This document shows positions 20,150 to 23,417 of a stretch of 64,000 bases of DNA, in pieces; position 1 is the first letter of the stretch, and every line of letters starts with the position of its first letter. The position numbers and the translations under genes were made by a program. Origin of the DNA: Jiangella gansuensis DSM 44835 (GTDB lineage Bacteria > Actinomycetota > Actinomycetes > Jiangellales > Jiangellaceae); the NCBI RefSeq assembly GCF_000515395.1, contig NZ_KI911782.1, positions 5,114,070 to 5,178,069 of the forward strand, written 5' to 3'. A model generated the notes under the pieces. It saw only the letters and a program-made list of their open reading frames with translations. It was not told the origin of the DNA and searched no databases.

Positions 20150-20488
20150 ATGAGTGCCGTCCAGGTCGTCGACCGCGGAGCCCGCGAGATCGTCGTCTTC
20201 CTCTCCGGCGACGTCAGTGGCGAGCCCGCCGACACCCTGCACGCCGCCGTCGACGAGGTCAGCCGGCTGGAGCAGCTGAACGCGCTGGATCACGTCGTCG
20301 TCGACATGCACCGGGTCACCGAGCTGGGCGACGCGGGGGTGGCGTTCCTGCGCGAGCTGTCCCGTCGCGGCCGCACTGCCGGTTACGAAGTGTCCTTCGC
20401 GGCCATGAGCGGGCCTGCGCATCGCGCGGTGGAAGCGGCCGGCTGGCGCTTCGCCGAGCACAGCCCGCTGCTCGACGACAGGACCTAG
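20150..20488 (+). CDS. STAS-domain protein (anti-sigma-factor-antagonist-like)
   Basis: 112 residues from ATG 20150 (GGAGGT seven bases upstream). It is a single STAS domain: IVVFLSGDVSGEPADTLHAAV at the start, then LDHVVVDMHRVTELGDAGVAFL, where the residue before Ala is Gly and not the usual phosphorylated Ser (DSSG in SpoIIAA; here LGDAG). The phospho-switch site is therefore unclear, and it may bind a ligand or partner without phosphorylation control. No anti-sigma kinase lies nearby. It is divergent from lysS and its stop overlaps that of the convergent esterase gene. Confidence 0.65.
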   Translation: MSAVQVVDRGAREIVVFLSGDVSGEPADTLHAAVDEVSRLEQLNALDHVVVDMHRVTELGDAGVAFLRELSRRGRTAGYEVSFAAMSGPAHRAVEAAGWRFAEHSPLLDDRT

Positions 20489-21444
20489 GCGTCGAGCAGC
20501 CGCCTGATCGCGTCGAGGTAGCGCTCGGTGTCCGCGGCCTCGTCGGGGTAGTCGGCATGCCCGGCGGAGAAGACCACCAGTTCCTTCGGCCCCGGGATCG
20601 CGTTGTGGACGGCGAACTGCCCAGGCGGCGGGACCGCCGGGTCCCACAGCGCCGGCGCCACGACCATGGGGATGCGCAGCCGGCCGGCCGCGGTGGCGGC
20701 GTCGAAGAATCGCAGCACCTCGCGGGCCTCGGGGCGCTCGGCGACGTAACGGCGCACCGCCTCGCCGCTGCCGGTGCACGGCATGGTGAGGCGCAGGTCG
20801 TGGTTGCCGAAGCTCGGCACGTGCAGGGCGCCGGCGTCGAACCGGTCGTCCCACGGCAGCGCGAGCGCCCCGATGCCACCGCCGAAACTGCCGCCGACGA
20901 AGACCAGCCGGTCCGGCGGCTGCGGCAACAGCGCCAGCAGCGCCGACGCCGCACACCACACGTCAGCCGCGCACCCGCCGTGCACGTAGGTGTCGACCGC
21001 GTCGATGCCGTGCAGCACGTGCTCGGCCGCCACCGCCGGGATGCCGGGGACGAGGCCACGCTGCGGCAGCCCGCGGGCGGCCGCGAACAGGGCCGCGGTG
21101 CCCGGCGGCACCAGCTCGAGGTCCGGCTCGTCGCGGCCGCCGTAGCCGTGCCCGACCACGAGGGCGCGCTCGGCGACACCGTCCGGCGGCAACACCAGCC
21201 AGCCGCCCAGACGTACGCCGTCGAGCGACGTGAACTCCACGTCGTGGAGGCCGGGCCGGCCCGGCACCTGGCGCGTCACCGGCGCCGGGTCGACCGCACG
21301 CGCCCGTCCGTACAGCGTCGTCCAGAATTCGGCGAACCCGGCCGGTTCGGGTGGCGCGCCGACCTCCTCGAGTGCCTTGCGGTCGTAGCCGTAGGTGGCG
21401 TCGAACGCGTCCGGTCCGAACCACTCGTCGTAGGGCGCCGTCAC
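20485..21444 (-). CDS. Acetyl xylan esterase/cephalosporin-C deacetylase family (AXE1) hydrolase
   Basis: A 319-residue alpha/beta hydrolase without signal peptide. The nucleophile elbow is VFVGGSFGGGIGALAL (Ser in GGSFGG) near residue 190. The acid is probably Asp in APALWDPAVPP and the catalytic His is in VVFSAGHADYPDE near the C-terminus. A cap of GYGGRDEPDLELVPPGTA type is conserved in the family. Members remove acetyl groups from xylo-oligosaccharides or cephalosporins inside the cell. It may help process acetylated plant oligosaccharides taken up by the cell. Confidence 0.8.
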   Translation of the reverse strand: MTAPYDEWFGPDAFDATYGYDRKALEEVGAPPEPAGFAEFWTTLYGRARAVDPAPVTRQVPGRPGLHDVEFTSLDGVRLGGWLVLPPDGVAERALVVGHGYGGRDEPDLELVPPGTAALFAAARGLPQRGLVPGIPAVAAEHVLHGIDAVDTYVHGGCAADVWCAASALLALLPQPPDRLVFVGGSFGGGIGALALPWDDRFDAGALHVPSFGNHDLRLTMPCTGSGEAVRRYVAERPEAREVLRFFDAATAAGRLRIPMVVAPALWDPAVPPPGQFAVHNAIPGPKELVVFSAGHADYPDEAADTERYLDAIRRLLDA

Positions 21445-21463: not shown

Positions 21464-22405
21464 TCAGCGGACGCTCGCCCGGAACCCCTCCCGCCAGCTC
21501 GGGTACTGCGGCTTCCAGCCCAGTTCGCGTTCGGCCTTCGCGTTGGACGATCCGCGCAGCGTGGTCATGAACGTCACCCCGAAGTCGCCGATCAGCGGCT
21601 TGGCCAGCCACGCCGGCAGCTTCCGCGGTGACTTCGCGCCGACTGCGGCGGCCAGCTCCGGCAGGATCTGCGCGACCGGTGCGGGCTCGTCGTCGACGAT
21701 GTTGTAGATGCCGGGTGCCCCGCCCTCGATGGCCGCGAGCGTGGCGCGGGCCGCGTCGTCGATGTGCAGGAGCGACCACACCGCGGTGCCGCCGCCGACC
21801 AGCGGGAAGCGCCGTTTACGGAGCATGCCGACGACATCGTCGCCCGTGAGGCCCGTGCCGGGGCCGTAGAAGCTGCCGTAGCGCAGGACCAGCCCGTCGA
21901 CGCCGGGGGTGCTCGTGGTCACCCGCTCCAGGTGCTGGATGGCGCTCAACGTCTGCCGGCAGGCAGCCGGCGGGTTCGCCTCCAGCGGGTCGTCCTCGGA
22001 CTTCACCGGGGCACCGCTGCGGGCATTGGGCCAGCCGGTGTAGCTCTGCGCGACGAACCGCCGCACGCCGGCGTCGCGGGCCGCGGCCAGCAGGTGGTCG
22101 GTGCCCTCCGTGCGCAGCCGGTTGGTGGCGGCGAACTCGGCGTCCCAGTGCTTGAAGTCGCCGGTGCCGCTGGCCAGCGCCGTCTGCTGCTGGACGATGA
22201 CGTCCGGCGCGGCGGCGCGAACCTCCTGCCGCACCGCATCGGCGTCGAGCCCGTCCACCACCACGCCCTCGGCACCTGCCGCGGTCAACTGGGCGAGCTT
22301 GCCCGGCGACCGTGTCGTGCCCACCACTTCGTGTCCGGCGGCCACCAGTATCGGGATCAGCGACCGTCCGACGGCGCCGGTCGCGCCGGCCAGGAACACC
22401 CTCAT
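21464..22405 (-). CDS. NAD(P)-dependent epimerase/oxidoreductase, partner of the ECF41 sigma factor
   Basis: 313 residues from ATG 22405 (GGAG upstream; an earlier ATG at 22426 lacks a good site). It is a short-chain-dehydrogenase-type Rossmann protein: MRVFLAGATGAVGRSLIPIL with the GxxGxxG cofactor loop, FVAQSYTGWPNA carrying the conserved Tyr, and LRYGSFYGPGTGL. The substrate is unknown. It faces the ECF41 sigma gene, and a TGTCACA-N16-CGTC promoter lies just upstream, so it is almost certainly that sigma factor's target. ECF41 regulons usually consist of just such an epimerase, an oxidoreductase or a carboxymuconolactone decarboxylase. Confidence 0.85.
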   Translation of the reverse strand: MRVFLAGATGAVGRSLIPILVAAGHEVVGTTRSPGKLAQLTAAGAEGVVVDGLDADAVRQEVRAAAPDVIVQQQTALASGTGDFKHWDAEFAATNRLRTEGTDHLLAAARDAGVRRFVAQSYTGWPNARSGAPVKSEDDPLEANPPAACRQTLSAIQHLERVTTSTPGVDGLVLRYGSFYGPGTGLTGDDVVGMLRKRRFPLVGGGTAVWSLLHIDDAARATLAAIEGGAPGIYNIVDDEPAPVAQILPELAAAVGAKSPRKLPAWLAKPLIGDFGVTFMTTLRGSSNAKAERELGWKPQYPSWREGFRASVR

Positions 22406-22470
22406 GGTTCTCCACTCCATCCTCATGTCTCACCGGCGGCGCCTGCGAGGCGCCCCGTCACATCCCCTTC

Positions 22471-22497
22471 GACGGGGGACCCCGGCGTCCTGTGACA
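22471..22497 (-). promoter_or_regulatory. ECF41-type promoter driving the epimerase gene
   Basis: On the minus strand TGTCACA (22491-22497), exactly 16 bases, then CGTC (22471-22474). This equals the published ECF41 consensus. Transcription would start about 60 nt before the ATG at 22405. Confidence 0.85.
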
Positions 22498-22508
22498 GGA
22501 TCGGGCGC

Positions 22509-23417
22509 GTGACCGATCTCGCGGTCTCCCACGACCGGTTGCGGCCGCTGATGTTCTCGATCGCGTACCGGATGCTCGGGTCCGTCAGCGAAGCCGAGGA
22601 CGTCGTCCAGGAGGCGTTCCTGCGGATGCACCGCAGCGCGTCCGCCGACCGCCCGCCCATCGACTCCCCGGAGGCGTACGCGACCACCGTGACCACGCGG
22701 CTGGCCATCGACGCGCTGCGCTCCGTCCGCCGCCGGCGTGAACAGTACGTCGGTCCGTGGCTGCCGGAACCGCTCCTGGCCGTCGACGACGACCCCGCCG
22801 GCCGGGCCGAGGCGGCGGAGACACTGTCCACCGCGTTCCTGGTGGTACTGGAGACGCTCTCGCCGGTCGAGCGCGCGGTGTTCCTGCTGCGCGAGGTGTT
22901 CGGTTACGGCTACGACGAGATCGCCGCCGTGGTCCAGCGGTCCGAGGCGAACTGCCGGCAGCTGCTGGTGCGGGCCAAGCGGCACATCGACGAGCGGCGG
23001 CCCCGGTTCGAACCGTCGCCGGAACGTCGGGAGGCGCTGGGCCGGCGGTTCATGGCGGCGGTCCAGGACCGCGACGTGGACGAGCTGGAGCGGATGCTGG
23101 CCGAGGACGTCGCGTTCTACGGTGACGGCGGTGGCCGGACCGCGGCGGCGCGCAAGCCGATCACCGGCGCGTTGCAGGTGGCCCGGTTCCTGGCGAACCT
23201 CGGCCGGATGGGCGAGCGCATCGGCGCCGTGCTCGAGCCGGTCACCGTCAACGGCCAGCCCGGCATCCGGGTGAGTGCGCCCGGCGGCATCATCGGCGTG
23301 CTGTCGCTGACCATCGCCGACGGCCACGTCCGCGGCGTGCACAACGTCATCAACCCCGAGAAGCTGCGCCACCTGGGCCCCGTCGGCGACCTCAACGCCC
23401 TGCTCCAAGGGAAATGA
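22509..23417 (+). CDS. ECF41-family RNA polymerase sigma factor with SnoaL-like C-terminal domain (SigJ-like)
   Basis: 302 residues from GTG 22509. Sigma-2 covers about 5-75 (FSIAYRMLGSVSEAEDVVQEAFLRM, quoted as FSIAYRMLGSVSEAEDVVQE plus AFLRM) and sigma-4 about 110-165 (LSPVERAVFLLREVFGYGYDEIA). A SnoaL/NTF2-like fold of about 120 residues follows, which in ECF41 proteins replaces the anti-sigma factor and tunes activity. The usual linker motif and the late NPEKL segment (HNVINPEKLRHLG) are present. It is divergent from the epimerase gene that it probably controls. Its stop codon lies inside a palindromic repeat. The inducing signal is unknown. Confidence 0.9.
   Translation: MTDLAVSHDRLRPLMFSIAYRMLGSVSEAEDVVQEAFLRMHRSASADRPPIDSPEAYATTVTTRLAIDALRSVRRRREQYVGPWLPEPLLAVDDDPAGRAEAAETLSTAFLVVLETLSPVERAVFLLREVFGYGYDEIAAVVQRSEANCRQLLVRAKRHIDERRPRFEPSPERREALGRRFMAAVQDRDVDELERMLAEDVAFYGDGGGRTAAARKPITGALQVARFLANLGRMGERIGAVLEPVTVNGQPGIRVSAPGGIIGVLSLTIADGHVRGVHNVINPEKLRHLGPVGDLNALLQGK

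What the first reader, a model, noticed from the sequence alone, without database searches (positions are those of the whole stretch)
22471..23417. Near-textbook ECF41 circuit: sigma factor, divergent epimerase and exact TGTCACA-N16-CGTC promoter
The sigma factor has the SnoaL-like C-terminal domain of ECF41. The adjacent epimerase is the kind of partner described for this group. The promoter matches the known consensus with exact spacing, on the epimerase side only. No equal site was found reading toward the sigma gene, so autoregulation may be absent.
Basis: partly seen in the sequence, partly recalled or inferred. Interest (0 to 1): 0.5.

Follow-up and report, generated by a model that had tools for sequence, protein, structure and literature searches.

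The report
Enzyme switch sharing one DNA box
A soil bacterium's well-known type of gene switch (an ECF41 sigma factor that turns on a neighbouring enzyme gene) is really there, and comparison with relatives suggests that the switch gene itself is read from an ordinary promoter that shares DNA with the enzyme's promoter, so the two probably compete.

Summary
Confirmed. A 302-residue ECF41 sigma factor (22509-23417, +) is divergent from a Rossmann-fold 'epimerase' (22405-21464, -), and TGTCACA-N16-CGTC (22497-22471, -) points at the epimerase. All 12 same-genus (Jiangella) genomes searched keep the pair and the exact promoter. Of 37 divergent loci among 79 named ones, 37 carry the motif toward the epimerase (33 exact, 4 with one mismatch), 1 also toward sigma.

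Two things go beyond the textbook. (1) The sigma gene looks leaderless: an extended -10 shape (TGN-N5-T) ends 6-7 nt before its start in 28 of 37 loci, against 0 of 36 epimerase starts and 0 of 27 ECF41-like genes with a sigma-directed motif. In Jiangella and three Microbacteriaceae loci this -10 overlaps the ECF41 -35, so the promoters should exclude each other, giving negative feedback (inferred). (2) The motif precedes an unlinked FAD/berberine-bridge-type oxidoreductase in 12 of 12 Jiangella genomes (11 exact, 1 with one mismatch), a predicted trans target. In this genome alone the motif is at chance frequency, and no transcript data were available. The circuit is a known kind; the promoter arrangement is a plausible new variant.

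The parts
22509..23417 (+). ECF41 sigma factor gene, GTG start, 302 aa (sigma2, sigma4, SnoaL-like C-terminal domain)
   Evidence: Pfam sigma regions 2 and 4 over cut-off, SnoaL_2 at 25.7 bits just under its 27 cut-off; TIGR02957 and SigJ models over cut-off; AlphaFold model best matches SigJ 5xe7
22758..22772 (+). WLPEP linker motif (residues 84-88)
   Evidence: W84, P86, E87, P88 invariant and L85 at 90% or more in 38 aligned sequences; motif named in PMC3426412 (section 21 read)
23124..23135 (+). DGGG motif of the C-terminal extension (residues 206-209)
   Evidence: D206 and G208 invariant, G207 and G209 nearly invariant in 38 aligned sequences; its status as an ECF41 signature is recalled
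23352..23366 (+). NPEKL motif (NPDKL-like, residues 282-286)
   Evidence: N282, P283, K285, L286 invariant in 38 aligned sequences; signature status recalled
22491..22497 (-). -35 element TGTCACA of the epimerase promoter
   Evidence: Sequence; conserved in 12 of 12 same-genus genomes
22471..22474 (-). -10 element CGTC of the epimerase promoter, 16 bp from the -35; transcription start predicted about 22462-22465
   Evidence: Sequence; conserved; in S. meliloti the motif lies 9 nt upstream of a mapped start (PMC3616915 passage)
22493..22501 (+). Predicted housekeeping extended -10 of the sigma gene, TGA-CAGGAT, ending 7 nt before GTG; overlaps the ECF41 -35 by five bases
   Evidence: Pattern TGN-N5-T at 6-7 nt in 28 of 37 divergent loci against a mean of 0.27 at 41 other distances; 0 of 36 epimerase starts; 0 of 27 ECF41-like genes with a sigma-directed motif; present in 12 of 12 same-genus loci
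21464..22405 (-). NAD-dependent epimerase/dehydratase-family protein (313 aa); an in-frame start at 22426 is possible
   Evidence: PF01370 83.6 bits; closest NCBIfam model is the diazo-reducing AvaA7 at 279.4 bits, below its 400 cut-off; the upstream in-frame ATG at 22426 is; the 22405 start is chosen from the alignment with relatives
22406..22462 (-). Predicted epimerase leader; carries a hairpin-forming insert of about 33 bp not seen in the 11 other same-genus loci
   Evidence: Alignment; fold of the 60 nt 22406-22465 gives -20.7 kcal/mol
20485..21444 (-). AXE1-type hydrolase gene 19 bp downstream of the epimerase; possible second gene of the operon, but not a conserved partner
   Evidence: PF05448; found at the locus in 2 of 5 named Jiangella

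Best explanation
This is an ECF41 sigma circuit with an asymmetric shared control region. SHOWN by sequence and conservation: an ECF41 sigma factor with a fused SnoaL-like domain, a divergent epimerase-family oxidoreductase with the exact ECF41 promoter, and no recognisable ECF41 promoter toward the sigma gene. STRONGLY SUGGESTED by comparison: the sigma gene is transcribed by the housekeeping holoenzyme from an extended -10 box ending 6-7 nt before its start codon, giving a leaderless mRNA, while the epimerase mRNA has a leader and a Shine-Dalgarno sequence. INFERRED: a low constant supply of sigma is held inactive by its own C-terminal domain until an unknown ligand or signal arrives; the active holoenzyme then sits on the epimerase promoter. 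Because the ECF41 -35 and the sigma gene's -10 share bases and the predicted start sites are about 44-46 bp apart, ECF41 polymerase on the epimerase promoter should block transcription of its own gene, a built-in negative feedback. ALSO INFERRED: an ECF41-type polymerase in Jiangella also drives an unlinked FAD/berberine-bridge-type oxidoreductase gene.
For: Family. Promoter footprint: 12 of 12 same-genus loci exact; 37 of 37 divergent named loci with at most one mismatch, 33 exact, spacer 16 in 36 and 15 in 1. Sigma-directed motif in 1 of these 37. Leaderless signal: TGN-N5-T at 6-7 nt in 28 of 37 and TANNNT at 9-10 nt in 8 others, so 36 of 37. Controls: 0 of 36 usable epimerase starts have the -10 shape, and a Shine-Dalgarno-like word stands before 33 of 36 epimerase but 4 of 36 sigma starts; 0 of 27 ECF41-like genes with a sigma-directed motif have the extended -10, and 19 of 27 have a Shine-Dalgarno-like word (8 of 10 named, 11 of 17 same-genus paralogues). 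A -10 about 12 bp upstream of the start marks leaderless genes, common in Actinobacteria (PMC3160421, PMC3898074, passages). Estimated start-to-start distance at most 100 bp in 33 of 37 loci, 44-46 bp in the 8 superimposed ones. Precedent: HrpL polymerase at the divergent hrpJ promoter represses hrpL (PMC5263251, passages). Trans target: the exact motif begins 91-121 nt upstream of the FAD oxidoreductase start in 11 of 12 same-genus genomes, with one mismatch in the twelfth, and no relative of the window sigma was detected within 1.5 kb.
Against: No transcript start, binding or expression data exist here. The extended -10 pattern was noticed in the same 37 loci in which it was then counted (then 47); only the control sets are independent, and the loci are phylogenetically related. 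One of the 37 (L078) is also in the sigma-directed set. The hexamers often lack the consensus first T (CAGGAT, CATGCT) or the A (TTGTAT), and Conexibacter (L119) has no such box. In the window AGGA could act as a Shine-Dalgarno, so a leadered mRNA is not excluded for this species. In Jiangella the TG and CA of the box are also required by the ECF41 -35, so only the terminal AT there is independent evidence. Of the 17 same-genus paralogues used as a control, 9 lack WLPEP, and the 5 of those 9 that were scanned are under the ECF41-type cut-offs, so they are ECF41-like rather than proper ECF41; among the 8 with WLPEP only 2 have the Shine-Dalgarno word. In this genome alone the motif is no more frequent than the control, and spacer 12 gives 26 hits against 74, so part of the 74 is chance. 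The trans target motif was not found in the two nearest same-family orthologues, L275 and L276, and which of the 8 ECF41-like paralogues would read it is unknown.
Confidence: 0.66

Rival explanations
1. Plain textbook ECF41 pair: sigma controls the epimerase only; the sigma gene is expressed from an ordinary unrelated promoter with a leader, and there is no feedback of any sign.
For: One-sided motif; AGGA before GTG in the window; published ECF41 cases have one local target (PMC3426412 passages and section 25; PMC6180224 passages).
Against: Localised extended -10 at 6-7 nt and lack of Shine-Dalgarno words across the clade; overlapping promoter geometry; conserved distal motif.
Confidence: 0.22
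2. The sigma gene is positively autoregulated through a degenerate or distant ECF41 site, for example one inside the epimerase gene.
For: Of 55 divergent ECF41/COE pairs in the 2012 survey 36 have a motif on the sigma side (PMC3426412 Table 4); an ECF41-like paralogue in this genome (L015) has the motif on both sides, exact toward sigma.
Against: No sigma-directed match within 300 bp in the 12 same-genus loci in the restricted scan, and 1 of 37 divergent epimerase loci has one.
Confidence: 0.07
3. The conserved bases before the sigma start are only the reverse complement of the ECF41 -35 plus a weak Shine-Dalgarno, not a promoter.
For: In Jiangella the two coincide.
Against: In Agromyces, Phytoactinopolyspora, three Nocardioides, Terrabacter and Intrasporangium loci the main -35 lies 30-160 nt away yet the extended -10 shape remains before the start codon (one Agromyces locus, L098, also has a second, one-mismatch motif at -17).
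Confidence: 0.15
4. The exact motif upstream of the FAD oxidoreductase is a site for another regulator or a relic, not an ECF41 promoter.
For: No ECF41 gene nearby; motif absent in two same-family orthologues.
Against: -35, -10 and the 16-bp spacer length are kept while the spacer sequence diverges, exactly in 11 of 12 genomes; FAD_binding_4 proteins are among the published ECF41 partner classes (PMC3426412 passage).
Confidence: 0.3

Closest known systems
ECF41 sigma factors of Bacillus licheniformis and Rhodobacter sphaeroides (Wecke et al. 2012, PMC3426412)
   Same: Domain make-up, WLPEP linker, COE neighbour, TGTCACA -35 (consensus TGTCACA-N16-CGTC), no evident anti-sigma gene.
   Different: Here the partner is a divergent epimerase-family protein; the sigma gene is predicted leaderless and housekeeping-driven; a second conserved motif lies upstream of an unlinked oxidoreductase, whereas the published cases had one detectable target.
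SigJ of Mycobacterium tuberculosis (5xe7)
   Same: Best sequence and fold match over the whole length.
   Different: 33-34% identical in the fold alignment; its genomic setting was not examined here.
hrpL/hrpJ divergent region of Pseudomonas syringae (PMC5263251)
   Same: Works alike in the proposed mechanism: the sigma holoenzyme on a divergent target promoter occludes the promoter of its own gene.
   Different: hrpL transcription is sigma-54 dependent and the occluded sites are activator and IHF sites, not a shared -10/-35 box; that HrpL is not ECF41 is recalled.
AvaA7, NADPH-dependent 3-diazoavenalumate reductase (PMC10777205, passages)
   Same: The window epimerase scores 279 bits over its full length to the NCBIfam model of AvaA7, far above the next model (61.5).
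   Different: Below the curated 400-bit cut-off; substrate unknown; the five neighbouring proteins scanned show no diazotisation enzyme.

Membership tests
ECF41 | Sigma2 and sigma4 domains plus a SnoaL-like C-terminal extension of about 100 residues | tested here: met
   Sigma domains over Pfam cut-offs, SnoaL_2 at 25.7 bits just under 27; model matches SigJ over its length and ketosteroid-isomerase folds
ECF41 | WLPEP motif in the sigma2-sigma4 linker | tested here: met
   Residues 84-88; invariant apart from L85 (90% or more) in 38 aligned sequences
ECF41 | Adjacent carboxymuconolactone decarboxylase, oxidoreductase or epimerase gene | tested here: met
   Divergent PF01370 protein, kept in 12 of 12 same-genus genomes
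ECF41 | TGTCACA-N16-CGTC promoter before the partner gene | tested here: met
   Exact
ECF41 | No anti-sigma gene beside the sigma gene | tested here: met
   Neighbours are a type III pantothenate kinase and the epimerase, then a hydrolase and a STAS-domain protein; the STAS protein scores only 20.2 of 53.45 bits for the anti-sigma antagonist model
ECF41 | Single local target gene or operon | tested here: inconclusive
   Conserved motif upstream of an unlinked oxidoreductase, but which ECF41 paralogue reads it, or whether any does, is unknown
ECF41 | C-terminal domain controls activity; sigma recognises the promoter | not testable with these tools
   Needs reporter assays or in vitro transcription
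Leaderless gene (sigma gene) | -10 box about 12 bp upstream of the start codon and no Shine-Dalgarno | tested here: inconclusive
   Met across the clade (28 of 37, plus 8 TANNNT variants; Shine-Dalgarno-like word in 4 of 36); in the window itself AGGA could be a Shine-Dalgarno
Leaderless gene (sigma gene) | Transcript starts at the start codon | not testable with these tools
   Needs 5' end mapping
HrpL-type negative autogenous control | Target promoter overlaps the promoter of the sigma gene | tested here: met
   Predicted elements share bases 22493-22497; estimated start sites 44-46 bp apart in the eight superimposed named loci. The sigma promoter itself is a prediction
HrpL-type negative autogenous control | Sigma represses its own gene through that promoter | not testable with these tools
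   Needs reporter assays

The most novel reading that the evidence does not exclude
A distinct class of ECF41 circuits in which positive autoregulation has been replaced by a housekeeping, leaderless promoter for the sigma gene whose extended -10 overlaps, on the other strand, the ECF41 -35 of the target gene. One box read two ways makes the two holoenzymes mutually exclusive, giving a self-limiting switch; the arrangement occurs in Jiangella and in three Microbacteriaceae loci, possibly by convergence, and in Jiangella an unlinked oxidoreductase has also been captured in trans.
Probability: 0.35. Interest if true: 0.55.

Novelty: new variant of a known kind. Interest (0 to 1): 0.38.

Why it matters
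ECF41 sigma factors are widespread and lack anti-sigma partners; how their own level is set is little studied as far as I could see. The comparison splits ECF41-type loci into two sets that can be told apart from sequence: sigma genes with an ECF41 promoter mostly have a Shine-Dalgarno-like word (19 of 27) and none has the extended -10 (0 of 27), while the divergent-epimerase lineage is predicted leaderless and housekeeping-driven. The prediction that one box serves as -35 for one polymerase and -10 for another is easy to test with point changes. The conserved distal oxidoreductase promoter offers a test of the rule that ECF41 factors act only on their neighbour, in a genus with several ECF41-like paralogues.

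Tried and rejected
Single-genome regulon listing: 7 exact hits against 6 for the control, so a regulon cannot be read from this genome alone. Of the seven, one precedes an ECF41-like paralogue (L001/L015), one the FAD oxidoreductase (L003), one is the window site, one (L005) lies 107 nt before the script's start of an MFS transporter and joined no cluster, and three (L002, L004, L006) lie inside an ORF, antisense to one, or lead to no gene in the ORF list.

A first upstream scan wrongly took loci on the minus strand as oriented and showed no motif in them; one search repeats it with orientation checked, and only one search is used.

I considered that the hydrolase downstream of the epimerase is part of a conserved operon; it was found at the locus in 2 of 5 named Jiangella (L053, L056), so it is not a conserved partner. 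I considered assigning the epimerase to diazo reduction (AvaA7); the score is below the family cut-off, so this stays a lead. A Tyr-x-x-x-Lys motif was not seen in the SYTGWP stretch where I expected it, and the tyrosine is often phenylalanine among 48 homologues, so classical epimerase chemistry is doubtful; the motif and its place are recalled knowledge.

A class-wide search with a Microbacterium sigma gave 30 loci, 19 of them from family members already held; they were not analysed further. Seven motif hits before a DnaJ-like ORF (2-48 nt from its start, six of them 2-8 nt; the one tested scores 22.2 bits against a 27.8 cut-off) were set aside as doubtful. Of 74 exact hits, 5 had no qualifying downstream ORF.

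Papers: PMC3426412 was seen as outline, passages and sections 21 and 25; PMC8999054, PMC10777205, PMC3898074, PMC3160421, PMC5263251, PMC6180224 and PMC3616915 as passages; others only in search listings. Searches for print on this arrangement: ECF41 with leaderless (one paper, whose ECF41 passage is about another operon), extracytoplasmic function with leaderless or divergent promoter (57 papers, 20 listed), ECF41 with regulon, autoregulation or orphan (249 papers, 20 listed), Jiangella with sigma factor (two listings). I saw no description of it in those listings and passages; only open-licence papers are held, and a 2019 paper on ECF41 C-terminal extensions was not held.

Full report
What is there. 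The minus-strand sequence TGTCACA-N16-CGTC is exact at 22497-22471. To its right, on the plus strand, lies a sigma factor gene of 302 codons starting at GTG 22509 and ending at 23417; to its left, on the minus strand, a 313-residue NAD-dependent epimerase/dehydratase-family gene, 22405-21464. The sigma protein has regions 2 and 4 over the Pfam cut-offs and a SnoaL_2 hit slightly under its cut-off (25.7 against 27 bits). It passes the curated cut-offs of TIGR02957 and the SigJ model, its best solved relative is SigJ of M. tuberculosis, and an AlphaFold model (mean pLDDT 81, pTM 0.53) finds SigJ first in the PDB and ketosteroid-isomerase folds further down (TM-scores to SigJ are only 0.45-0.50, so the domain arrangement is not predicted with confidence). 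The WLPEP linker motif described for ECF41 (PMC3426412, section 21) is present and essentially invariant in 38 aligned sequences.

Is the promoter more than chance? From this genome alone it cannot be told: one hit in the window against 0.38 expected, and 7 exact hits in the genome against 6 for the reversed control. Comparison settles it. In the 12 genomes of the genus searched, the window's own included, the divergent pair is kept 12 of 12 times with an exact -35, exact -10 and a 16-bp spacer whose sequence varies. Over these 12 genomes the exact N16 motif occurs 74 times, against 4 for the reversed pattern, 10 with spacer 20 and 26 with spacer 12.

One-sidedness. Among 79 named loci that encode a relative of the sigma factor (the best 80 of 325 confirmed stretches were kept), a script classed 37 as divergent with an epimerase homologue. 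All 37 have the motif toward the epimerase with at most one mismatch (33 exact, 4 with one; spacer 16 in 36 and 15 in 1) and 1 of 37 also has one toward the sigma gene. Some of these named loci are the same loci as some unnamed family members, so the two sets overlap. In the 2012 survey 36 of 55 divergent pairs had a motif on the sigma side and 41 on the partner side (PMC3426412 Table 4), so the one-sided form is the minority there but the rule in this lineage. Within the same genome an ECF41-like paralogue (without WLPEP) beside a carboxymuconolactone decarboxylase gene carries motifs on both sides, exact toward sigma and with one mismatch toward the decarboxylase (L015).

How the sigma gene is probably expressed. 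Directly before the sigma start codons of the 37 loci there is a localised element TGN-N5-T, an extended -10 shape, ending 6 nt (22 loci) or 7 nt (6 loci) before the start; at the other 41 distances tested the mean is 0.27 and the maximum 5. Eight more loci have TANNNT ending 9-10 nt before the start; only Conexibacter has neither. The pattern was noticed in these same loci, so I tested it on sets not used to find it: 0 of 36 usable epimerase starts have it and 33 of 36 have a Shine-Dalgarno-like word, while only 4 of 36 sigma starts do. Of ECF41-like genes that do have a sigma-directed motif, 0 of 10 named loci and 0 of 17 same-genus paralogues have the extended -10, and 8 of 10 and 11 of 17 have a Shine-Dalgarno-like word. 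Of those 17, 8 carry WLPEP and NP[DE]KL and 9 do not; the Shine-Dalgarno word is in 2 of the 8 and 9 of the 9. One named locus, L078, is in both sets. Start codons were chosen by script as the in-frame start nearest the alignment start. A -10 about 12 bp before the start codon is the published mark of leaderless genes, common in Actinobacteria (PMC3160421 and PMC3898074, passages). I therefore predict that in this lineage the sigma gene is made from a housekeeping promoter as a leaderless mRNA. In the window itself AGGA before GTG leaves a leadered mRNA possible.

A shared box. In the window the predicted sigma -10 (22493-22501, TGA-CAGGAT) overlaps the ECF41 -35 (22491-22497) on the opposite strand. 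All 12 same-genus loci keep TGTGACA followed by NNAT, while the two bases between vary, so the terminal AT is conserved beyond what the -35 needs. Three other loci (L097 and L102 Microbacterium, L110 Humibacter) show the same superposition, whereas in most Agromyces, Nocardioides and Phytoactinopolyspora loci and others the -35 lies 29-160 nt upstream and the -10 shape stays by the start codon. Estimated start sites are at most 100 bp apart in 33 of 37 loci and 44-46 bp apart in the eight superimposed named ones. Polymerase on one promoter should exclude it from the other. The nearest demonstrated case I found is hrpL/hrpJ, where the HrpL holoenzyme at the divergent target represses hrpL (PMC5263251, passages). 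This step is inferred.

Regulon. Sorting the 74 genus-wide motif hits by the next gene gives 17 before ECF41-like sigma genes (9 genomes), 12 before the window's epimerase (12 genomes), 11 before one orthologous FAD_binding_4/BBE oxidoreductase (11 genomes), 7 before a DnaJ-like ORF, 6 before transporters that are divergent from an ECF41 gene (one of the six tested: MMPL), smaller groups and singletons (69 in all), and 5 without a qualifying ORF. The twelfth oxidoreductase has the motif with one mismatch; no relative of the window sigma was detected within 1.5 kb of any of the twelve, nor in the 12 kb fetched in the window's genome; two same-family orthologues (59-60% identical) lack the motif. 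FAD_binding_4 proteins are a published ECF41 partner class (PMC3426412 passage), so this looks like a partner gene that is regulated from a distance. Published ECF41 cases seen here had one local target (PMC3426412; PMC6180224 passages); a review cites an ECF41 factor of Azospirillum for motility (PMC8999054, reference title seen), so wider regulons are not unheard of. The window's genome has 8 ECF41-like genes scoring over 200 bits, 4 of them over the TIGR02957 cut-off, so which of them reads which promoter is open.

The partner enzyme. The epimerase-family protein is closest, among NCBIfam models, to AvaA7, an NADPH-dependent enzyme that replaces a diazo group by hydride (279 bits, cut-off 400; PMC10777205 passages). 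Its SYTGWP stretch lacks Tyr-x-x-x-Lys, and the tyrosine is often phenylalanine among 48 homologues, so a reductase of reactive small molecules is as plausible as an epimerase. In 9 of 10 named Jiangellaceae loci tested the pair lies between the pantothenate kinase and STAS genes (the tenth, a short contig, shows the kinase only); in 16 loci of other genera tested only the sigma/epimerase pair was found.

Verdict. The circuit is a new member of a known kind; the leaderless housekeeping promoter superimposed on the ECF41 -35, and the conserved distal target, make it a plausible new variant that simple mutations can test.

Noticed in passing
L003 1501-1527 and 1622-2977 (G000:C1:2902309-2903785): Exact ECF41 promoter upstream of an unlinked FAD_binding_4/BBE oxidoreductase, conserved in 12 of 12 same-genus genomes (11 exact, 1 with one mismatch).
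   Followed up: yes
L015 1410-1471 (G000:C1:20885 region): An ECF41-like paralogue (no WLPEP) divergent from a carboxymuconolactone decarboxylase gene has ECF41 motifs on both sides, unlike the window locus.
   Followed up: partly
L220, L233, L235, L244, L259, L264: In six same-genus genomes a WLPEP-bearing ECF41 gene is divergent from a transporter gene (MMPL in the one tested), each with an exact ECF41 motif in front; MMPL is not among the partner classes named in the 2012 survey passages I saw.
   Followed up: partly
L001, L223, L226, L239, L246, L250, L256, L267, L269: Nine ECF41-like sigma genes lack the WLPEP linker motif (5 of 9 scanned: under the TIGR02957 and SigJ cut-offs) yet sit behind an exact ECF41 motif.
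   Followed up: partly
window 22406-22462: The epimerase leader of this species has an insert of about 33 bp with a 7-bp hairpin (GGCGCCT/AGGCGCC) absent from the 11 other same-genus loci.
   Followed up: partly
L224, L227, L236, L243, L248, L255, L266: An exact motif lies 2-48 nt (six of seven: 2-8 nt) before a small DnaJ-like ORF in seven same-genus genomes; promoter or coincidence not decided.
   Followed up: no
window 21464-22405: The 'epimerase' scores far better to the diazo-reducing AvaA7 model than to any other NCBIfam model, though below its cut-off.
   Followed up: partly
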